Shown here: one piece after another, positions 12,929 to 38,142 of the stretch
Position numbering within the stretch: position 1 is the stretch's first letter
Layout of the letters: the number at the start of each line of letters is the position of its first letter
From: Nocardia spumae
GTDB lineage: Bacteria > Actinomycetota > Actinomycetes > Mycobacteriales > Mycobacteriaceae
Direction: 5' to 3'
NCBI RefSeq assembly: GCF_020733635.1
Contig: NZ_JAJFZL010000001.1
Location: 1,984,001 to 2,048,000, forward strand
DNA: 64,000 nt
Position numbers and translations under genes: made by a program
The notes under the pieces: model-generated
Database searches by the model: none
Told to the model about the DNA's origin: nothing
What the model saw: only the letters and a program-made list of their open reading frames with translations

Positions 12929-13378
12929 ATGGCCGAGTATCCGAGACTGCATTCGCTGCCGGGCGGACGGGACGGTGCCTCGGCGTCCCACGACAGCGCC
13001 GAGGCGCGGCCGCGGGCGGACTTCGTGCGCAGCGTTCCGGCGCCCCCGCGACGCTCCGCCCGGACATCCGCGGAACCGCTGTGGCGCGAGGTACTCGGTG
13101 AGCGGCTGCGCGAACTGCGCCGAGACCAGGGCGAGACGCTGTCGGAGACGGCGGGTCGGGCCGGAATCTCTCCGCAGTACCTGTCCGAGATCGAACGCGG
13201 GCGCAAGGAACCCTCCAGCGAGATGATCGCCGCACTGGCCGGTGCGCTCGGCACCACGCTCGGCGAATTGACCACCGAGATCGCCGGAACCCTGCGGCGG
13301 GTGTCCCGGCCGGTGCCCGTCGGTCCGCTGGTCGGCCGGCCGCCGGTGAATCCGACGATGCTGGCTCGCGCCGCCTGA
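12929..13378 (+). CDS. XRE-family activator of the ClgR/PopR type
   Basis: This 149-residue DNA-binding protein has a helix-turn-helix at about residues 57-110 (LRELRRDQGETLSETAGRAGISPQYLSEIERG), the hallmark of the ClgR/PopR family. It is flanked by a 50-residue basic N-terminal extension and a Pro-rich C-terminal tail. The protein ends in LARAA. In Streptomyces, ClgR and PopR end in Ala-Ala and are degraded by ClpP1P2, and PopR activates a second clpP operon. The gene is convergent with just such an operon, 28 bases away. A ClgR-type box and a leaderless -10 box precede it. That it activates the adjacent clpP pair is inference from this context. Confidence 0.82.
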   Translation: MAEYPRLHSLPGGRDGASASHDSAEARPRADFVRSVPAPPRRSARTSAEPLWREVLGERLRELRRDQGETLSETAGRAGISPQYLSEIERGRKEPSSEMIAALAGALGTTLGELTTEIAGTLRRVSRPVPVGPLVGRPPVNPTMLARAA

Positions 13379-13406
13379 GCGGACTCCCGAACTCGCCGGA
13401 TCGGCC

Positions 13407-13997
13407 TCAGTCCCGGGCGCCCAGAACTCGGTCGGCCAGTCCGTAATCGACCGCCGTCCGCGCGGTGAAGACCCGGTCCCGATCGGTGTCGTGGCGCAGT
13501 GTCGCCACTTCTTGGCCCGTGTGCCGGGACAGGATCGTCTCGATCTCGGCCCGCATGCGCACGAGTTCGTCGGCCTGCAGGATCAGATCGGGGATCGCGC
13601 CTTGGCCGCGGGTCGCCGGTTGATGCAGGACCGCGCGGGCGTGCGGCAGCATCGAGCGCCGATCGGTCGCGCCACCGGCCAGCAGCACCGCACCGACCGC
13701 GATGGCCTGGCCGACACATGTGGTCGCCACAGGCGAGGAAATGTGCTGCATGGTGTCGTAGATCGCCAGCATCGCCGACAGATCGCCGCCCTCGCAGTTG
13801 ATGTACAGATTGATCTCCTGCCCCGGACTGTCGGCGTCCAGGTGCAGCAGCTGCGCGATGAGGGCATTCGCCACACCGGAATCGATCGGTGTGCCCAGGT
13901 AGACGATCCGCTCGGTCAGCAGGTGGGAGTAGACGTCCATGATCCGCTCGCCGCGTGGATGCTGAGCGATGACATTGGGGATGGTGTAGCTGGTCAT
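13407..13997 (-). CDS. ClpP paralogue lacking the catalytic serine (ClpR-like)
   Basis: This 196-residue protein has the full ClpP fold and length but a defective active site. In ClpP the catalytic Ser sits in a GQAAS-type motif. Here the same position reads GQAIA, with Ala100 replacing Ser, while flanking residues align without gaps. His125 (LHQP) and Asp174 (DRDR) of the triad remain. It should assemble into ClpP rings without cleaving peptides, like ClpR of cyanobacteria and plastids. A GGAAGGA box precedes the ATG. It lies 16 bases after the active paralogue in the same operon. Its active partner is presumably that protein, though mixing with ClpP1P2 is possible. The substitution was read directly from the codons (GGC CAG GCC ATC GCG). 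Confidence 0.9.
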   Translation of the reverse strand: MTSYTIPNVIAQHPRGERIMDVYSHLLTERIVYLGTPIDSGVANALIAQLLHLDADSPGQEINLYINCEGGDLSAMLAIYDTMQHISSPVATTCVGQAIAVGAVLLAGGATDRRSMLPHARAVLHQPATRGQGAIPDLILQADELVRMRAEIETILSRHTGQEVATLRHDTDRDRVFTARTAVDYGLADRVLGARD

Positions 13998-14013
13998 GAC
14001 TGTCCTTCCCGCC

Positions 14014-14619
14014 TCAGCCCGAGATCCCGACGCGATGACGCTGCGGAATCACTTGATCGAAGGAATCGACGATGTGGTCGATGAAGCCGTACTCCCGGGC
14101 CTCGGTCGCGGTGAACCAGCGGTCGTGCAGCGAGTCCTCGTAGATTCGGTCGAACGGCTGGCCGGTGTCCTCGGCGATCAGGCCGAGCACCGTATTGACG
14201 GTGTGGCGCAGATCGTCGGCCTGCACCTCCACCTCGCCCGCGCTGCCGCCGATTCCCGCCGACCCCTGATGCATGAGGATGCGGGCATGAGGCAGCGCGT
14301 ACCGGCGCCCCTTCGTCCCGGCCGACAGGAGGAACTGACCCGCACTGCACGCCAATCCGAGTGCCAGAGTGGACACCCGGCACGGCACCAACCTCATCAC
14401 ATCGCGGATCGCGAGCATCGACGGCACCGACCCGCCGGGAGAGTGGATCCACAGCGAGATATCGCCGTCAGGATCCTCCGCGGCCAGGGTCAGCACCTGG
14501 GTCATGAGCAGGGTGCCGTTGTCGTCGTCGAGCCCTCCGTCGAGCACGAGAACCCTTCGCGCGAGCAACTGTTCGCGGGTGCGCCAACTGAACAGGGGAG
14601 TCTTTTCGTCGTGAGCCAT
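14014..14619 (-). CDS. clpP: Second ClpP peptidase, catalytically complete
   Basis: This 201-residue serine peptidase is a paralogue of the housekeeping ClpP1P2. The triad is intact: Ser92 in GLACSAGQ, His117 in LMHQ and Asp166 in LHDRWF. The substrate-binding strand SPGGS is also present. It has little of the N-terminal propeptide seen in ClpP2. The ATG at 14619 follows a G-rich stretch. Another in-frame ATG lies six codons upstream. It is the first gene of a two-gene operon with the serine-less paralogue. In Streptomyces a comparable clpP3-clpP4 operon is silent until ClpP1P2 fails. Two tandem dyads lie just upstream and are the likely operator. Confidence 0.92.
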   Translation of the reverse strand: MAHDEKTPLFSWRTREQLLARRVLVLDGGLDDDNGTLLMTQVLTLAAEDPDGDISLWIHSPGGSVPSMLAIRDVMRLVPCRVSTLALGLACSAGQFLLSAGTKGRRYALPHARILMHQGSAGIGGSAGEVEVQADDLRHTVNTVLGLIAEDTGQPFDRIYEDSLHDRWFTATEAREYGFIDHIVDSFDQVIPQRHRVGISG

Positions 14620-14658
14620 GCCCCCAACGTGCCCCATCCGGAGCTGCCGCGGCGCTGA

Positions 14659-14690
14659 CGCTGCTGTGAGCAGATCTGCTGACAGCAGCG
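14659..14690 (-). promoter_or_regulatory. Double dyad operator of the second clpP operon
   Basis: Two copies of CTGCT-N3-AGCAG occur at 14661-14673 and 14676-14688, with centres 15 bases apart. Together they build a 32-base palindrome with one mismatch. The site lies about 40 bases upstream of the first clpP start codon. The arrangement fits two dimers of a ClgR/PopR-type regulator bound side by side. It could instead act as a second pepN terminator, but the internal repeat is not needed for that. Confidence 0.55.
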
Positions 14691-14735: not shown

Positions 14736-17330
14736 TCAGGCGATGTCGGCGGCGCGTGCCCGCAGCGACCGTTCGATACCGGCCTTGCCTTCGATCACCA
14801 AGCGGCGCAATGCCGGCGGGTGCTCGCCGGTGAGGAATTTGTCGGCCACCGCCACCGCTTCCGTGCTGATCGCCCAGTGCGGGTAGAGGCCGATCACGAC
14901 GGTCTGGGCGACCTCGCTGGAGCGTCGTTCCCAGACCGAGGCGATCTCGTCGAAATAGCGCTGGACATACGGCGACAGCAGTTCGCCCTGACCGACCGGC
15001 GCGAACCCGCCGACGATCGCGCGGGCGGTGATATTCGGTACCGAATCGTCCTCCATCACTGTCCGCCAGGCTTTTTCCTTGACCTCGGCCTGCGGGCGCG
15101 CGGTGGCGGCAGCGGCAGCCTGTCGCCGACCGGCGGCAGTGGGGTCGCGATCGAGTTCCGCATCGACCACCGGGGTCTCGGCGCTTTCGGCGTCGAGCTG
15201 TCCCGCCGCCGCGAGCGCTTGGACGATCCGCCAGCGCAGGTCGGTGTCGACCGCGAGCCCGGGCAGCTGGGCCGCGGCCGGATCGGAATCCAGCAGCAGC
15301 GTGCCGAGAACCTCGCTGTGCCAGGAGGACAGCCGTGCGGCGGTCAGCGCGTTCACGAACGCCAGCTGGTGATCCGAACCCGGTTCGGCGGCCCGGGCGA
15401 GTTCCAGCAAACGGTCCGCGAAGGCCGGCCAGCCGGTCTGATCGGCCCACTCGGGATCGGCGTAGCTCGCCAGCGCGGTGTGCGCCTGCATCAGGAGGCG
15501 TTGCACCACACCGATTTCGGTCTCGGCGCCGATGCCGCTCTGCACCAGCGCCACGAAATCCCGGGCCCGCATCTCGGCCTGTCGCGTCATTTCCCAGGCG
15601 GCCGACCAGCACAGCGTCCGGGGCAGGGATTCGGCGATGTCGGCGATGCGAGCCACCACCGTGTCGAGCGACCGCGGATCCAGCCGCAGCGAGCAGTAGG
15701 TGAGGTCGTCGTCGTTGACCAGTACCAGTTGCCCGCGCTCCACACCGACCAGTTCGGCGACCTCGGTGCGTTCGGCCGCGTCGAGATCGAGCTCGACGCG
15801 CTTGGTACGCACCAGCTTTCCGTCACGGTCGTCGTAGACGCCGATCGCCAGGCGGTGCACGCGGTGCTCACCGGCGCCGGGTTCGGCGCCGCCCTGCACT
15901 ACCGCGAACCGGGTGAACGTGCCGTCGGCACCGACCTCGAAGTCGGGGCGCAGCGTATTCAGGCCGGTGGTCTTGAGCCATTGCGCACCCCAGCTGGAAA
16001 GGTCACGCCCGGAGGACTTCTCGAGCGCGCCGACCAGATCGTCGAAGGTCGCATTGCCGAAGGCGTGGGCGGCGAAATAGTCGCGCAGTCCGGCCAGGAA
16101 CGGCTCCAGCCCGACATAGGCCACCAGCTGCTTCAATACCGAGGCGCCCTTGGCGTAGGTGATGCCGTCGAAATTCACCTCGACCGCTGCCAGATCCGGA
16201 ATGTCGGCGGCGATGGGGTGCGTCGAGGGCAGTTGATCCTGCCGGTAGGCCCAGGATTTCTCCACATTCGCGAAAGTCGTCCAGGCAGCGGTGTATTCGG
16301 TGGCCTCCGCCTGGCACAGCACCGAGGCGAAGGTGGCGAACGACTCGTTCAGCCACAGGTCGTCCCACCACTTCATGGTCACCAGATCGCCGAACCACAT
16401 GTGCGCCATCTCGTGCAGCACGGTTTCCGCGCGTCGCTCGTAGGATGCGCGAGTGACCTTGGAGCGGAAGACGTAATCCTCGAGGAAGGTCACCGCGCCG
16501 GCGTTCTCCATGGCGCCGGCGTTGAATTCGGGAACGAAGAGCTGATCGTATTTGCCGAATACGTAGGGAATGCCGAAATTCCGGTGATAGAACGCGAAGC
16601 CCTGCTTGGTCTCGGTGAAAAGCCTTTCGGCGTCCATGAATTCGGCCAGCGAGGCCCGGCAGTAGATGCCGAGCGGAATGGTCGACTGGTCGTCGGTGTA
16701 GACGTCGATCCATTTCGCGTACGGGCCGGCTATGAGCGCGACCAGATAGGTGCTCATGCGCGGTGTGGTGGCGAAGGTGTGCTCGACGCTCTCGCCGATG
16801 GTGCGGGTGGCGGTGGCGGCGCCGTTGGAGATGACCTCCCAGTCGGCCGGGGCGGTGACGGTGATGTCGTAGGTCGCCTTGAGATCCGGCTGATCGAAAC
16901 ACGCGAACATCCGCTTGGCGTCGGCGGTTTCGAACTGCGAGTACAGATACACCTTGTCGTCGGTCGGATCGACGAAACGGTGCAGGCCCTCACCGGTGTG
17001 GGAATACACGCAGTCCGCTTCGACCACCAGGACGTTGTTCTCGGCGAGATCGGTCAGGGTGAGGCCCCGCGACTCGTCGTAGCCCGAGACGTCGAGTTCG
17101 GTGCCGTTGAGAACGGCCGAACGCACACCTGCCGCGACGATATCGACGAAGGTCTCCGCACCCGGCGTGGCCGTGAAGCCGACGGTGGAGCGGGAGAAGA
17201 ACGTTTCGCCCGCGGCGGCCGCGGGGTCGGTCGGCTGCCCGGTGAGATCGAGTTCGACGCGATAGTTCTCCACGCTGATCGTCGCGGCCCGCGCGATGGC
17301 CTGCTCGCGGGTGAGGTTCGGTGCAGACAA
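14736..17330 (-). CDS. pepN: Aminopeptidase N, M1 family
   Basis: This 864-residue zinc aminopeptidase removes N-terminal residues from peptides in the cytosol, downstream of Clp and proteasome degradation. The exopeptidase motif GAMEN (residues 272-276) and the zinc site HEMAH (306-310), with the third ligand Glu329 in WLNES, are intact. The C-terminal ERAP1-like helical domain is complete. The TTG at 17330 is the best start. A GGAG lies ten bases upstream, the N-terminus matches the family, and the length equals the mycobacterial protein. The frame stays open further upstream without family similarity. It is divergent from purC. Confidence 0.95.
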   Translation of the reverse strand: MSAPNLTREQAIARAATISVENYRVELDLTGQPTDPAAAAGETFFSRSTVGFTATPGAETFVDIVAAGVRSAVLNGTELDVSGYDESRGLTLTDLAENNVLVVEADCVYSHTGEGLHRFVDPTDDKVYLYSQFETADAKRMFACFDQPDLKATYDITVTAPADWEVISNGAATATRTIGESVEHTFATTPRMSTYLVALIAGPYAKWIDVYTDDQSTIPLGIYCRASLAEFMDAERLFTETKQGFAFYHRNFGIPYVFGKYDQLFVPEFNAGAMENAGAVTFLEDYVFRSKVTRASYERRAETVLHEMAHMWFGDLVTMKWWDDLWLNESFATFASVLCQAEATEYTAAWTTFANVEKSWAYRQDQLPSTHPIAADIPDLAAVEVNFDGITYAKGASVLKQLVAYVGLEPFLAGLRDYFAAHAFGNATFDDLVGALEKSSGRDLSSWGAQWLKTTGLNTLRPDFEVGADGTFTRFAVVQGGAEPGAGEHRVHRLAIGVYDDRDGKLVRTKRVELDLDAAERTEVAELVGVERGQLVLVNDDDLTYCSLRLDPRSLDTVVARIADIAESLPRTLCWSAAWEMTRQAEMRARDFVALVQSGIGAETEIGVVQRLLMQAHTALASYADPEWADQTGWPAFADRLLELARAAEPGSDHQLAFVNALTAARLSSWHSEVLGTLLLDSDPAAAQLPGLAVDTDLRWRIVQALAAAGQLDAESAETPVVDAELDRDPTAAGRRQAAAAATARPQAEVKEKAWRTVMEDDSVPNITARAIVGGFAPVGQGELLSPYVQRYFDEIASVWERRSSEVAQTVVIGLYPHWAISTEAVAVADKFLTGEHPPALRRLVIEGKAGIERSLRARAADIA

Positions 17331-17550
17331 GGAGACTCCTTCGCTCGAGCCGGTCGGTGGAGCACGCTGCGGACGCAACGCTGGCGGTGCCCAGAATGCC
17401 ACGTTCGCGGCCCGCCGTCCGGGGCGACCGTTCATCCGCACCCCGTCCAGGATGAAACGCCGCACGCCACGCCACCGACCGTCGGGCGGCTGCGGGGCCC
17501 TCGGTAGGCTGATCGTTCGTGTGCGGCGGACAGCGGAACGAGGAGGACGG

Positions 17551-18375
17551 TTGAAGCACATCCACGCCGGAAAGGTGCGCGATCTCTATGCCGACGGCGA
17601 GTCGCTGATCCTGGTCGCCTCCGATCGCGTCTCGGTCTACGACGTGGTGCTGCCGACGCCGATCCCGGACAAGGGCGCGCTGCTGACCCAGCTGTCGAAC
17701 TGGTGGTTCGGGTACTTCTCGGATGTGCCCAACCACGTGCTCTCCACCACCGACGTCCCGGCCGAATTCGCCGGTCGCGCGGTACGGGTGCGCCCGCTGA
17801 AGATGGTGCAGGTGGAGTGCATCGCCCGTGGTTATCTGGTGGGTTCGGGCCTGCAGGAGTACCGGCGTACCGGGGCGCTATCCGGGGTGGTGCTGCCCGA
17901 GGGCCTGCGTGAGGGGGACAAGCTCCCCGAGCCGATCTTCACGCCCACCACGAAAGCCGCCGCCGGCCACGACGAGCCCATCACGTTCGATGACGTCGTG
18001 AATCAGGAAGGCCGCGAGGTCGCGGAGCGGCTGCGGGCGCTGACCCTCGAGATCTACACCCGGGGCGCCGAACACGCCGCGGCCCGCGGTGTGATCATCG
18101 CCGATACCAAGGTCGAATTCGGTTGGGACGGTGACGTCCTCACCCTCGGAGACGAAGTGCTGACCTCGGACTCCTCGCGGTTCTGGCCCGCCGACGAATG
18201 GGAGCCGGGGCGCACGCAGCGCTCGTTCGACAAACAGTTCGTGCGCGACTGGGCGACCTCGACCGGCTGGGACAAGGAACCGCCCGGCCCCGAGATCCCG
18301 GCCGACGTCGTAGCCGTCACGCGGGAAAAGTACATGGACGCATACCAGCGCATCACCGGCAACACCTGGTCCTGA
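17551..18375 (+). CDS. purC: SAICAR synthetase (phosphoribosylaminoimidazole-succinocarboxamide synthase)
   Basis: This enzyme joins CAIR and aspartate with ATP in step eight of purine synthesis. The 274-residue protein has the ATP-binding GKVRDLY motif near the N-terminus, the signature VECIARGYLVGSG, and IIADTKVEFG near residue 190. A TTG start at 17551 is chosen because a GAGGAGG box lies four to ten bases upstream. A GTG ten codons earlier is an alternative. It is divergent from pepN. In M. tuberculosis purC lies elsewhere, so this placement is specific to this lineage. Confidence 0.95.
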   Translation: MKHIHAGKVRDLYADGESLILVASDRVSVYDVVLPTPIPDKGALLTQLSNWWFGYFSDVPNHVLSTTDVPAEFAGRAVRVRPLKMVQVECIARGYLVGSGLQEYRRTGALSGVVLPEGLREGDKLPEPIFTPTTKAAAGHDEPITFDDVVNQEGREVAERLRALTLEIYTRGAEHAAARGVIIADTKVEFGWDGDVLTLGDEVLTSDSSRFWPADEWEPGRTQRSFDKQFVRDWATSTGWDKEPPGPEIPADVVAVTREKYMDAYQRITGNTWS

Positions 18376-36641: not shown

Positions 36642-36681
36642 GTTTCGTTAGGGTTTGTGTCAACCGAATCAAGGCCGCGGT

Positions 36682-36709
36682 CGAGCGTCGGGGACGGAGG
36701 CGGTAGCTT
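36682..36709 (+). promoter_or_regulatory. Promoter of clpP1, shared motif
   Basis: CGAGCG at 36682-36687 and TAGCTT at 36704-36709 are 16 bases apart. They are joined by CGGAGGCGG directly before the -10 box. Almost the same block (22 of 23 bases from 36695 to 36717) recurs before the DUF4233 gene at 63093-63115. A TAGGGT at 36649 could be a further -10 box. The clpP1 leader from this promoter is about 80 bases. Confidence 0.5.
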
Positions 36710-36795
36710 GCGTAACCACGAAGGCCCCGGAAGACCGCATATTGGACAGAGGCTGTGCCGGCAGGCATCGTGCCGGCGAGAGAGGGCAGGTATCC

Positions 36796-37428
36796 GTGAC
36801 AATCAACCAGGCTGTGGCACCTTTGAAGTCGGGGCCGGTCATGACATCCGCGACTGCTGGGCTCAACCTCAGTGATTCGGTGTACGAGCGGCTGCTGCGC
36901 GACCGCATCATCTTCCTCGGCACCCAGGTCGACGACGACATCGCGAACAAGCTGTGCGCGCAGATCCTGCTGCTGGCGGCCGAGGACCCGACGCGCGACA
37001 TCTCGCTGTACATCAACTCGCCCGGTGGCTCGGTGACCGCGGGTATGGCCATCTACGACACGATGCAGTACGCGGAGTGCGACATCTCGACCATCGCGTT
37101 CGGCCTGGCCGCCTCGATGGGGCAGTTCCTGCTGACCGCCGGCACCAAGGGCAAGCGCTTCGCGCTGCCGCACACCCGGATCATGATGCACCAGCCCTCG
37201 GCCGGTATCGGTGGCTCGGCCGCCGACATCGCGATCATGGCCGAGCAGTTCGCCCACACCAAGCGTGAGCTCAACGAACTGCAGGCACTGCACACGGGCA
37301 AGTCGGTCGAGCAGGTGACCGCCGACGCCGACCGCGATCGCTGGTTCACCGCCAGCGAGTCGCTCGAGTACGGGTTCATCGACCGGGTGATCACCCACGC
37401 TCGCCAGACCGCCGACGGCGCCGAGTAG
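36796..37428 (+). CDS. clpP1: ClpP1 protease subunit
   Basis: This 210-residue serine peptidase forms, with ClpP2, the hetero-tetradecameric core that works with ClpX or ClpC and is essential in mycobacteria. The triad is intact: Ser in GLAASMGQ, His in MMHQPSAG and Asp in ADRDRWF. The GTG at 36796 has a GAGGGCAGG stretch upstream. An internal ATG at 36841 is another possible start and would remove a propeptide-like segment. The clpP2 gene follows after 45 bases and the two form an operon. Confidence 0.96.
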   Translation: MTINQAVAPLKSGPVMTSATAGLNLSDSVYERLLRDRIIFLGTQVDDDIANKLCAQILLLAAEDPTRDISLYINSPGGSVTAGMAIYDTMQYAECDISTIAFGLAASMGQFLLTAGTKGKRFALPHTRIMMHQPSAGIGGSAADIAIMAEQFAHTKRELNELQALHTGKSVEQVTADADRDRWFTASESLEYGFIDRVITHARQTADGAE

Positions 37429-37473
37429 TCCCGCCCGCGAACTTCGCTCACCGACACTGATTTTGGAGACAAG

Positions 37474-38142
37474 ATGACTCTCATCGATCCTCGTGCCGGC
37501 CTGTCCGGTATCGCACCGGCGAGCCCGCAGGCCCGCTACATCCTGCCGTCGTTCATCGAGCACTCGAGCTTCGGCGTCAAGGAGTCGAACCCGTACAACA
37601 AGCTGTTCGAGGAGCGCATCATCTTCCTCGGTGTACAGGTCGACGACGCTTCCGCCAACGACATCATGGCGCAGTTGCTGGTGCTGGAGTCGCTGGATCC
37701 CGATCGCGACATCACGATGTACATCAACTCGCCCGGTGGCTCGTTCACCTCGCTGATGGCCATCTACGACACCATGCAGTACGTGCGTGCCGATGTGGCG
37801 ACGGTCTGCCTCGGTCAGGCGGCGTCGGCGGCGGCCGTGCTGTTGGCGGCCGGTACCCCCGGCAAGCGTGCCTGCCTGCCCAATGCCCGCGTACTGATCC
37901 ACCAGCCGTCGCTGGAGGGCGGAATCCAGGGCCAGGTCTCCGATCTGGAGATCCAGGCCGCGGAGATCGAGCGCATGCGCCGGCTGATGGAGACCACGTT
38001 GGCTCGCCACACCGGCAAGGACGCGGACACGATCCGCAAGGACACCGATCGCGACAAGATCCTGACCGCCGACGAGGCCAAGGAATACGGGATCATCGAC
38101 ACGGTGTTCGACTACCGCAAGTTGAGCGCGCAGAAGAAGTGA
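37474..38142 (+). CDS. clpP2: ClpP2 protease subunit
   Basis: This 222-residue partner of ClpP1 carries the triad Ser in GQAASAAA, His in LIHQPSLEG and Asp in TDRDKIL. A long N-terminal region of about 30 residues precedes the conserved [15 protein letters not shown] and is probably a propeptide. The ATG at 37474 has a GGAGAC box. It is the second gene of the clpP1P2 operon, closed by a very strong terminator that isolates clpX. Confidence 0.97.

What the first reader, a model, noticed from the sequence alone, without database searches (positions are those of the whole stretch)
13407..14619. Second clpP operon pairs an active ClpP with a serine-less ClpP
The upstream gene has an intact Ser92-His117-Asp166 triad. 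The downstream gene keeps His125 and Asp174 but has Ala100 where the catalytic Ser should be (GQAIA instead of GQAAS), with ungapped flanking residues. A dead subunit conserved as an intact gene suggests a structural or regulatory role, as for ClpR in cyanobacteria. It could also poison or retune ClpP1P2 if it mixes with them.
Basis: partly seen in the sequence, partly recalled or inferred. Interest (0 to 1): 0.7.

Follow-up and report, generated by a model that had tools for sequence, protein, structure and literature searches.

The report
Spare Clp protease with dead ring
A Nocardia genome carries a spare protein-shredding machine in which one of the two subunits has lost its cutting site but kept what looks like the dock for the unfolding motor, and in many related genomes that same subunit has lost the site by various mutations while its partner has kept its own.

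Summary
The second clpP operon of this Nocardia encodes ClpP3 (14014-14619, Ser92-His117-Asp166) and ClpP4 (13407-13997, Ala100-His125-Asp174). It is no strain mutation: 118 of 121 nearest ClpP4 sequences lack the Ser, while 121 of 121 ClpP3 keep the triad. In a class-wide sample, 70 of 108 other ClpP4 loci have a broken triad (3 of the 38 intact look like ClpP2). Lesions differ: Ser in Nocardia and others, Asp in one clade, His to Gly in 56 of 56 Streptomyces genomes read. On trees the triad changes 18, 5 and 12 times in ClpP4 and never in ClpP3. Housekeeping ClpP2 is intact in 49 of 49. ClpP4, not ClpP3, has the N-terminal docking loop, and both genes are under purifying selection. A PopR-like regulator ending in Ala-Ala and a tandem PopR-type box mark this as the ClpP3P4 backup system known from Streptomyces. 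Best reading: ClpP3 cuts; ClpP4 is a non-catalytic docking ring, a convergent ClpR-like subunit. Biochemistry is untested; none of the passages I read states it.

The parts
12929..13378 (+). popR-like HTH regulator (149 aa), convergent to the clpP operon, C-terminus ...MLARAA
   Evidence: HTH_31 52 bits, ClgR model NF041677 68 bits (below its cut-off of 170); a separate, better ClgR match lies elsewhere in the genome (135 bits, also below the cut-off). A regulator matching it was found in 166 of 189 loci and ends in Ala-Ala in 160 of 166.
13407..13997 (-). clpP4: ClpP subunit with a broken triad (196 aa), Ala100-His125-Asp174, C-E-G-G-D in place of S-P-G-G-S, N-terminal loop with Pro7
   Evidence: predicted structure with mean pLDDT 88.2; phage ClpP among the best matches in the viral structure library (rank 2, TM 0.91)
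13698..13700 (-). codon GCG (Ala100) where the catalytic Ser codon stands in active ClpPs
14003..14009 (-). GGAAGGA, likely ribosome-binding site of clpP4 in the 16-base gap between clpP3 and clpP4 (inference)
   Evidence: read from the sequence
14014..14619 (-). clpP3: ClpP subunit (201 aa) with intact Ser92-His117-Asp166, no N-terminal axial loop
   Evidence: solved chains named ClpP subunit 1 are among the closest (4u0g_H and others)
14660..14689 (.). tandem palindromic PopR-type box GCTGCTGTGAGCAGATCTGCTGACAGCAGC upstream of clpP3
   Evidence: 152 of 186 upstream regions match the tandem pattern with 3 mismatches or fewer, against 0 of 558 shuffles (pattern written after looking at some of these regions); only such site in the 7.07 Mb genome (up to 3 mismatches to the window's own box)
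36655..38142 (+). housekeeping clpP1 (ORF 36655-37428, true start uncertain) and clpP2 (37474-38142), both with intact triads; context and control, not part of the spare operon

Best explanation
The operon encodes the two halves of a spare Clp core, the ClpP3P4 system known from Streptomyces. ClpP3 (ClpP1-like) supplies all the peptidase sites. ClpP4 (ClpP2-like) is a non-catalytic ring that holds ClpP3 in its active state and presents the axial loops and hydrophobic patch to the Clp-ATPase. The PopR-like activator next door binds the tandem box upstream of clpP3 but is normally destroyed through its Ala-Ala tail by ClpP1P2, so the spare core is made only when ClpP1P2 fails. Because the docking ring need not cut, its triad has been free to decay, and has done so several times by different routes. 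Shown here: sequences, lesions, reciprocal conservation, selection, operon, box and tail. Inferred: ring composition, ATPase docking, lack of activity, and the PopR circuit in Nocardia.
For: Triad states in 188 loci: ClpP4 broken in 144; ClpP3 SHD in 186 of 186 readable (one contig-edge frame, L016, dropped). Parsimony changes at S/H/D: ClpP4 18/5/12, ClpP3 0/0/0; at the N-loop Pro: ClpP4 0, ClpP3 58. ClpP4 has the N-loop in 189 of 189, ClpP3 lacks at least half of it in 184 of 188; patch Tyr65 is Tyr in 188 of 189 ClpP4. Housekeeping ClpP2 SHD 49 of 49, ClpP1 SHD 47 of 48. dN/dS 0.168 against 0.148. P3 is nearest to ClpP1 (52%) and P4 to ClpP2 (48%); P3 and P4 distances correlate, r = 0.88. 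Tandem box and Ala-Ala tail. Streptomyces ClpP4 has Gly for His in 16 of 16 genomes and 40 of 40 more, while passages of PMC9765437 say that one of clpP1clpP2 or clpP3clpP4 suffices for viability of S. lividans, and that the ClpP1P2 core keeps full activity with ClpP2 S131A but loses it with ClpP1 S113A.
Against: 44 of 188 ClpP4 loci keep SHD (3 of these, L188, L192 and L193, look like housekeeping ClpP2), so the dead state is common, not universal; six SHD members sit inside the dead Nocardia-type clade. His125 and Asp174 stay in 121 of 121 near sequences though Ser is gone, which simple relaxation does not predict. ClpP4's third patch residue is His in this genome and in 48 of 189, where the housekeeping ClpP1 and ClpP2 here have Tyr. 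If a docking ring needs no Ser, it is unexplained why ClpP2 has kept it in 49 of 49. No assembly, activity or binding data were found for these proteins, and S. lividans ClpP4 itself was not in hand. A paper on S. cattleya reports faster antitoxin decay with 'ClpP4X' in E. coli (PMC4989188 passages), but its ClpP4 is not shown to be this subunit.
Confidence: 0.73

Rival explanations
1. ClpP4 is a dominant-negative or tuning subunit that mixes into the housekeeping ClpP1P2 core and lowers or redirects its activity.
For: ClpP4 resembles ClpP2 most (48%), so mixing is conceivable; ClpP_ADEP shows that an accessory ClpP can act on ClpP1 in Streptomyces (PMC12607617 passages).
Against: clpP4 was found without its clpP3 only once, at a contig edge (188 of 189 loci have both); the two diverge in step (r = 0.88); the PopR-type control would, if it works as in Streptomyces, keep ClpP4 absent while ClpP1P2 is active.
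Confidence: 0.1
2. ClpP4 is decaying: its loss of catalysis is neutral and the gene is on its way out.
For: Different lesions in different lineages and some Ser-bearing relatives within the dead clade fit relaxed selection on catalysis.
Against: The gene as a whole is under purifying selection like clpP3; 52 columns are invariant in a 30-sequence alignment of intact and dead members; the N-loop Pro shows 0 changes in 183 sequences. The triad columns are the ones that moved in ClpP4 and not in ClpP3.
Confidence: 0.06
3. ClpP4 forms its own homomeric ring or cage that holds, gates or traps substrates without cutting, separate from ClpP3.
For: The predicted fold is intact and nothing here measures partner choice.
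Against: Constant pairing in an operon and co-divergence with ClpP3; ClpP3 lacks the N-loop and would need a docking partner.
Confidence: 0.07

Closest known systems
Streptomyces ClpP3P4, the PopR-controlled backup Clp core (S. lividans)
   Same: clpP3-clpP4 pair, linked PopR-like regulator, mostly ending in Ala-Ala, tandem PopR box upstream of clpP3 (Streptomyces L147 fits the published TCTGCC-3N-GGCGAATCTGCC-3N-GGCAGA exactly); ClpP4 triad broken there too (His to Gly).
   Different: In Nocardia the lesion is at Ser plus the S-P-G-G-S motif, not at His; the box reads GCTGCT-3N-AGCAGA/TCTGCT-3N-AGCAGC.
Actinobacterial housekeeping ClpP1P2 (M. tuberculosis, Streptomyces)
   Same: Division of labour in the passages read: ClpP1 carries catalysis, ClpP2 the N-loop and ATPase docking; ClpP3 and ClpP4 show the matching features.
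   Different: ClpP2 keeps its triad in 49 of 49 genomes tested; ClpP4 often does not.
ClpR of cyanobacteria, plastids and apicoplasts
   Same: ClpP paralogue without a working triad, kept beside an active ClpP (PMC7966870 passages).
   Different: Different lineage as far as tested; plant ClpR shares its ring with ClpP1, whereas a homomeric ClpP4 ring is assumed here by analogy with ClpP2. Plasmodium ClpR, reported to form its own heptamer, is the nearer analogue.
ClpP_ADEP of Streptomyces hawaiiensis
   Same: Accessory actinobacterial ClpP that works through hetero-complexes (PMC12607617 passages).
   Different: Resembles ClpP1 most and is a resistance determinant near an antibiotic cluster; not tested further here.

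Membership tests
ClpP peptidase family (S14, PF00574) | Clp_protease profile and fold | tested here: met
   P0001 177 bits, P0002 212 bits; model of P0002 pLDDT 88.2, ClpP folds among the best matches in the viral library; the PDB fold search was never accepted
ClpP peptidase family (S14, PF00574) | Ser-His-Asp catalytic triad | tested here: not met
   ClpP4 is A-H-D; ClpP3 meets it (S-H-D). ClpP4 is thus a member by profile and fold, not an active peptidase by sequence
Streptomyces-type ClpP3P4/PopR system | clpP3-clpP4 operon with linked PopR-like regulator | tested here: met
   regulator found in 166 of 189 loci; it is below the ClgR cut-off and no PopR model was used
Streptomyces-type ClpP3P4/PopR system | tandem PopR box upstream of clpP3 | tested here: met
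   published box from a PMC9775585 passage
Streptomyces-type ClpP3P4/PopR system | C-terminal Ala-Ala of the activator | tested here: met
   P0003 ends ARAA; 160 of 166
Streptomyces-type ClpP3P4/PopR system | expression only when ClpP1P2 fails; activator degraded by ClpP1P2 | not testable with these tools
   needs immunoblots or transcript data in mutants
Docking-ring role as in ClpP2 | N-terminal loop with conserved Pro, hydrophobic patch | tested here: inconclusive
   Pro7 189 of 189 and Tyr65 188 of 189 are met; the third patch residue is F/Y/H in 72/69/48, His in this genome; binding itself not testable
ClpR | ClpP homologue lacking a working triad, kept with an active ClpP | tested here: met
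   definition from PMC7966870 passages
ClpR | descent from the cyanobacterial/plastid ClpR lineage | tested here: inconclusive
   P0002 scores 148 bits on NF009204, which I recall as the ClpR model, below its cut-off of 263 and below general ClpP models; no ClpR was put in the tree; broken ClpP4s are nested among intact ClpP4s, which points to a separate origin
ClpR | heptamer mixed with or stacked on active ClpP | not testable with these tools
   no complex prediction available

The most novel reading that the evidence does not exclude
The spare core is a hardened protease: with no working triad in its docking ring it offers half the reactive sites to serine-reactive natural products (such as beta-lactones) that would switch it on by disabling ClpP1P2. 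Loss of Ser, His or Asp would all serve, which would explain why lesions recur in ClpP4 but not in the ClpP2 of the same genomes. ClpP3 would stay a target, so the protection would be partial.
Probability: 0.1. Interest if true: 0.8.

Novelty: new variant of a known kind. Interest (0 to 1): 0.64.

Why it matters
Inactive ClpP subunits are described for cyanobacteria, plastids and apicoplasts (PMC7966870 passages, a review of those systems only). These data suggest they also arose several times in the actinobacterial class sampled here, including in the backup protease of Streptomyces, which the passages I read treat as a ClpP3P4 core without saying that one half lacks a full triad. If right, that core has at most seven working sites, all in ClpP3, and the ClpP1/ClpP2 division of labour shown by mutagenesis has been fixed by evolution in the spare copy. 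It also poses a clean question: why does ClpP2, whose Ser is dispensable in the reported assays, keep it, while ClpP4 does not? Lineages with Ser, His, Asp or no lesion give a natural series to test that.

Tried and rejected
Rejected: strain-level mutation or sequencing error (118 of 121 sequences lack Ser); misalignment (ungapped); pseudogene (dN/dS); general relaxation of docking rings (ClpP2 49 of 49 intact). The idea that Ala is specifically fixed was dropped: Gly, Met, Glu, Trp and Phe also occur. I first thought that lack of the first patch Tyr in both ClpP3 and ClpP4 might mark acyldepsipeptide resistance; dropped, because the housekeeping ClpP1 and ClpP2 of this genome lack it too (Ser and Thr). 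The odds of the hardening idea were lowered from 0.12 to 0.10, and of the best explanation from 0.74 to 0.73, for this and for the invariant His and Asp.

Led nowhere: plasmid search (12 records, 6 of them actinobacterial); NCBIfam cut-offs (none met by either ClpP); pepN-like gene beside the operon (14 of 189 loci); ten paper searches: no listing or passage seen says that actinobacterial ClpP4 is inactive. The Viala et al. papers were seen only as citations and not looked up; Compton et al. 2013 is not held; supplements, among them the alignment of PMC12607617, were not read. No paper was read whole; passages only.

Weak points of my own counts: the 109 class loci were picked by E <= 1e-62 to the Nocardia ClpP4, so distant ClpP4s are missed; three 'intact' rows (L188, L192, L193) have no HTH beside them and sit basal (L192 and L193 lie where the ClpP2 query also hit), so are probably ClpP2; without them 70 of 105 are broken. 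The 121 Streptomyces proteins are those nearest to a His-less query, so biased. The trees are quick ones (SH-aLRT only, no mixture model); the number of losses is a minimum, and direction rests on one ClpP2 outgroup. Named and unnamed loci overlap (188 loci, 183 distinct ClpP4). dN/dS pairs are not independent. I chose the 20 extra ClpP2 loci by hand, 16 of them from genomes whose ClpP4 is broken.

Full report
What is there. Window 12929-14689 holds a compact unit: a convergent HTH regulator (12929-13378, +), clpP4 (13407-13997, -), clpP3 (14014-14619, -) and, upstream of clpP3, a 30-base tandem palindrome (14660-14689). clpP3 and clpP4 are 16 bases apart. Both are ClpP by Pfam. The genome (7.07 Mb, 5 contigs; a Nocardia by its nearest relatives) has four ClpP matches in all; the other two are clpP1 and clpP2, in the same window between ORFs that I read as tig and clpX (those two names come from reading the sequence, not from a search).

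The observation. ClpP3 has S92-H117-D166; ClpP4 has A100-H125-D174. Among the 120 best hits plus the query, ClpP4 has A99, G13, M4, S3, E2 at position 100 and H and D in 121 of 121; ClpP3 has S, H and D in 121 of 121 (the best 120 of 5402 and of 8000 scored hits). So the loss is old and held, but the replacing residue is not fixed.

Across the class. Of 394 genomes drawn from the class, 109 have a ClpP4-like match at E <= 1e-62; all 109 loci were read. Without the window's own, 108: SHD 38, AHD 21, SGD 15, GHD 7, EHN 6, EHH 5, SHN 4, WHT 3, GHE 2 and seven singles (SDD, WHD, SHS, SGE, FHN, SHH, AQD). Together, 188 loci: 144 broken, 44 SHD. ClpP3 is SHD in 186 of 186 readable; one contig-edge frame (L016) was misread and dropped, and one locus (L123) has no ClpP3 because its contig ends there. 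Three SHD rows (L188, L192, L193) are probably ClpP2.

Streptomyces. The SGD group (f21/g27) is Streptomyces: its ClpP4 as query returns named Streptomyces proteins. Of these 120 plus the query, 119 are SGD, one SHD and one SAD (nearest relatives only). In 121 genomes of that genus, 52 have the gene at E <= 1e-75; of the 47 not already held, 40 were fetched: His to Gly in 40 of 40 (38 SGD, 2 SGE), ClpP3 SHD in 40 of 40. With the 16 (15 SGD, 1 SGE) this makes 56 of 56.

History. On a quick tree of 183 distinct ClpP4 with the window's ClpP2 as outgroup, the dead states fall in separate places: a Nocardia-type clade (99 rows, support 98) and a neighbouring clade of 12 (support 88), both with Ser lesions; Streptomyces with His to Gly (16 rows, 99); a clade of 17 with Asp lesions (99), within which 11 rows also lost Ser, to Glu (99); and a single SDD. 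The least number of intact/broken switches is 9 and of triad states 32. Six rows in the Nocardia-type clade carry Ser (four placements), yet all six keep C-[E/D]-G-G-D in place of S-P-G-G-S, so they may be reversions or remnants. Ser codons are TCN in 67 of 67 Ser-bearing ClpP4, one step from Ala, and AGY in 182 of 188 ClpP3 frames, one of the other six being the misread one. This may make the Ala route easier in ClpP4; it does not explain the Glu, His and Asp lesions.

Reciprocal conservation. Parsimony changes per column: Ser 18, His 5, Asp 12 in ClpP4 (183 rows); 0, 0, 0 in ClpP3 (181 rows); median column 11 and 12. The N-loop Pro has 0 in ClpP4 and 58 in ClpP3. The N-loop is present in 189 of 189 ClpP4 and at least half missing in 184 of 188 ClpP3; patch Tyr65 is kept in 188 of 189 ClpP4 but is Trp in 119 of 188 ClpP3. 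At the first patch site ClpP4 has Asn and ClpP3 Ser, but ClpP1 and ClpP2 of this genome also lack Tyr there; at the third, ClpP4 has His where ClpP1 and ClpP2 have Tyr. In M. tuberculosis the ATPases need the ClpP2 face, and the N-loop with its Pro and the patch are conserved in ClpP2 rather than ClpP1 (PMC4416901 passages).

Control. Housekeeping ClpP2 is SHD in 49 of 49 genomes' loci read (29 best matches and 20 chosen by me, 16 of these 20 from genomes with a broken ClpP4), and the neighbouring ClpP1 is SHD in 47 of 48 (one SHE; one had no neighbour). Decay is specific to ClpP4 as far as sampled.

Still a working gene. Median dN/dS among Nocardia pairs: clpP4 0.168 (374 pairs), clpP3 0.148 (376 pairs). 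AlphaFold2 gives a confident model of ClpP4 (pLDDT 88.2, pTM 0.81) that matches viral ClpP folds. The P3 and P4 distance matrices correlate at 0.88 over 187 loci.

Control circuit. A PopR/ClgR-like regulator was found in 166 of 189 loci and ends in Ala-Ala in 160 of the 166; among the 40 extra Streptomyces loci it was found in 38 and ends in Ala-Ala in 35. The tandem box is found with 3 mismatches or fewer in 152 of 186 upstream regions against 0 of 558 shuffles (the pattern was written after looking at some of these regions). Streptomyces L147 fits the published PopR site exactly. In this genome the box occurs once (up to 3 mismatches). In S. lividans PopR is assumed to activate clpP3clpP4 and its degradation depends on ClpP1 and ClpP2; at least one of the two operons is essential (PMC9765437 passages). 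A S. albus mutant without clpX, clpP1 and clpP2 lives with clpP3clpP4 (PMC7142297 passage).

Mechanism. Passages of PMC9765437 report that the Streptomyces ClpP1P2 core keeps full casein degradation with ClpP2 S131A, that activity is abolished with ClpP1 S113A, and that the ATPases need the ClpP2 patch. P3 is nearest to ClpP1 and P4 to ClpP2 in this genome (52% and 48%). The simplest account is that ClpP3P4 works likewise and that evolution has made the kind of change that the bench made in ClpP2. If S. lividans ClpP4 is like the 56 Streptomyces genomes read here, its reported ability to live on clpP3clpP4 means that ClpP3 suffices for cutting.

Novelty and limits. None of ten paper searches gave a listing or passage that says actinobacterial ClpP4 is inactive (Tried and rejected); subscription papers and supplements were not read. 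All functional claims are inference. The most useful open points are why ClpP2 keeps its Ser and why Nocardia ClpP4 keeps His and Asp.

Noticed in passing
L005-L084, window 12929-14689: The Nocardia-type clpP3-clpP4-regulator unit occurs in scattered families (Nocardia, Kribbella, Actinomadura, Streptosporangium, Microbacterium, Arthrobacter), which hints at horizontal transfer; plasmid-collection relatives occur in Embleya and Tsukamurella.
   Followed up: partly
window 13782-13799 (clpP4 residues 67-72): The motif N-S-P-G-G-S is N-C-E-G-G-D here and in most Ala-type ClpP4; the two Gly show no change in 183 ClpP4.
   Followed up: yes
catalytic Ser codons of clpP3 and clpP4, loci L005-L193: Ser is coded AGY in 182 of 188 ClpP3 frames but TCN in 67 of 67 Ser-bearing ClpP4.
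   Followed up: partly
clpP3, second residue after the catalytic His (ClpP4 column 127), loci L005-L193: It is Gly in 120 of 120 ClpP3 partners of Ser-dead ClpP4, but Pro in 29 of 44 partners of intact ClpP4 and 13 of 16 partners of His-dead ClpP4: a compensating change or just shared descent.
   Followed up: no
window 14736-17561: An ORF that I read as aminopeptidase N (no family search done) ends just upstream of the clpP3 box; a relative lies near the operon in 14 of 189 loci.
   Followed up: partly
P0245 (331 aa, metagenome protein): Looks like a fusion or chimera of two ClpP4-like parts on a 3-kb contig.
   Followed up: no
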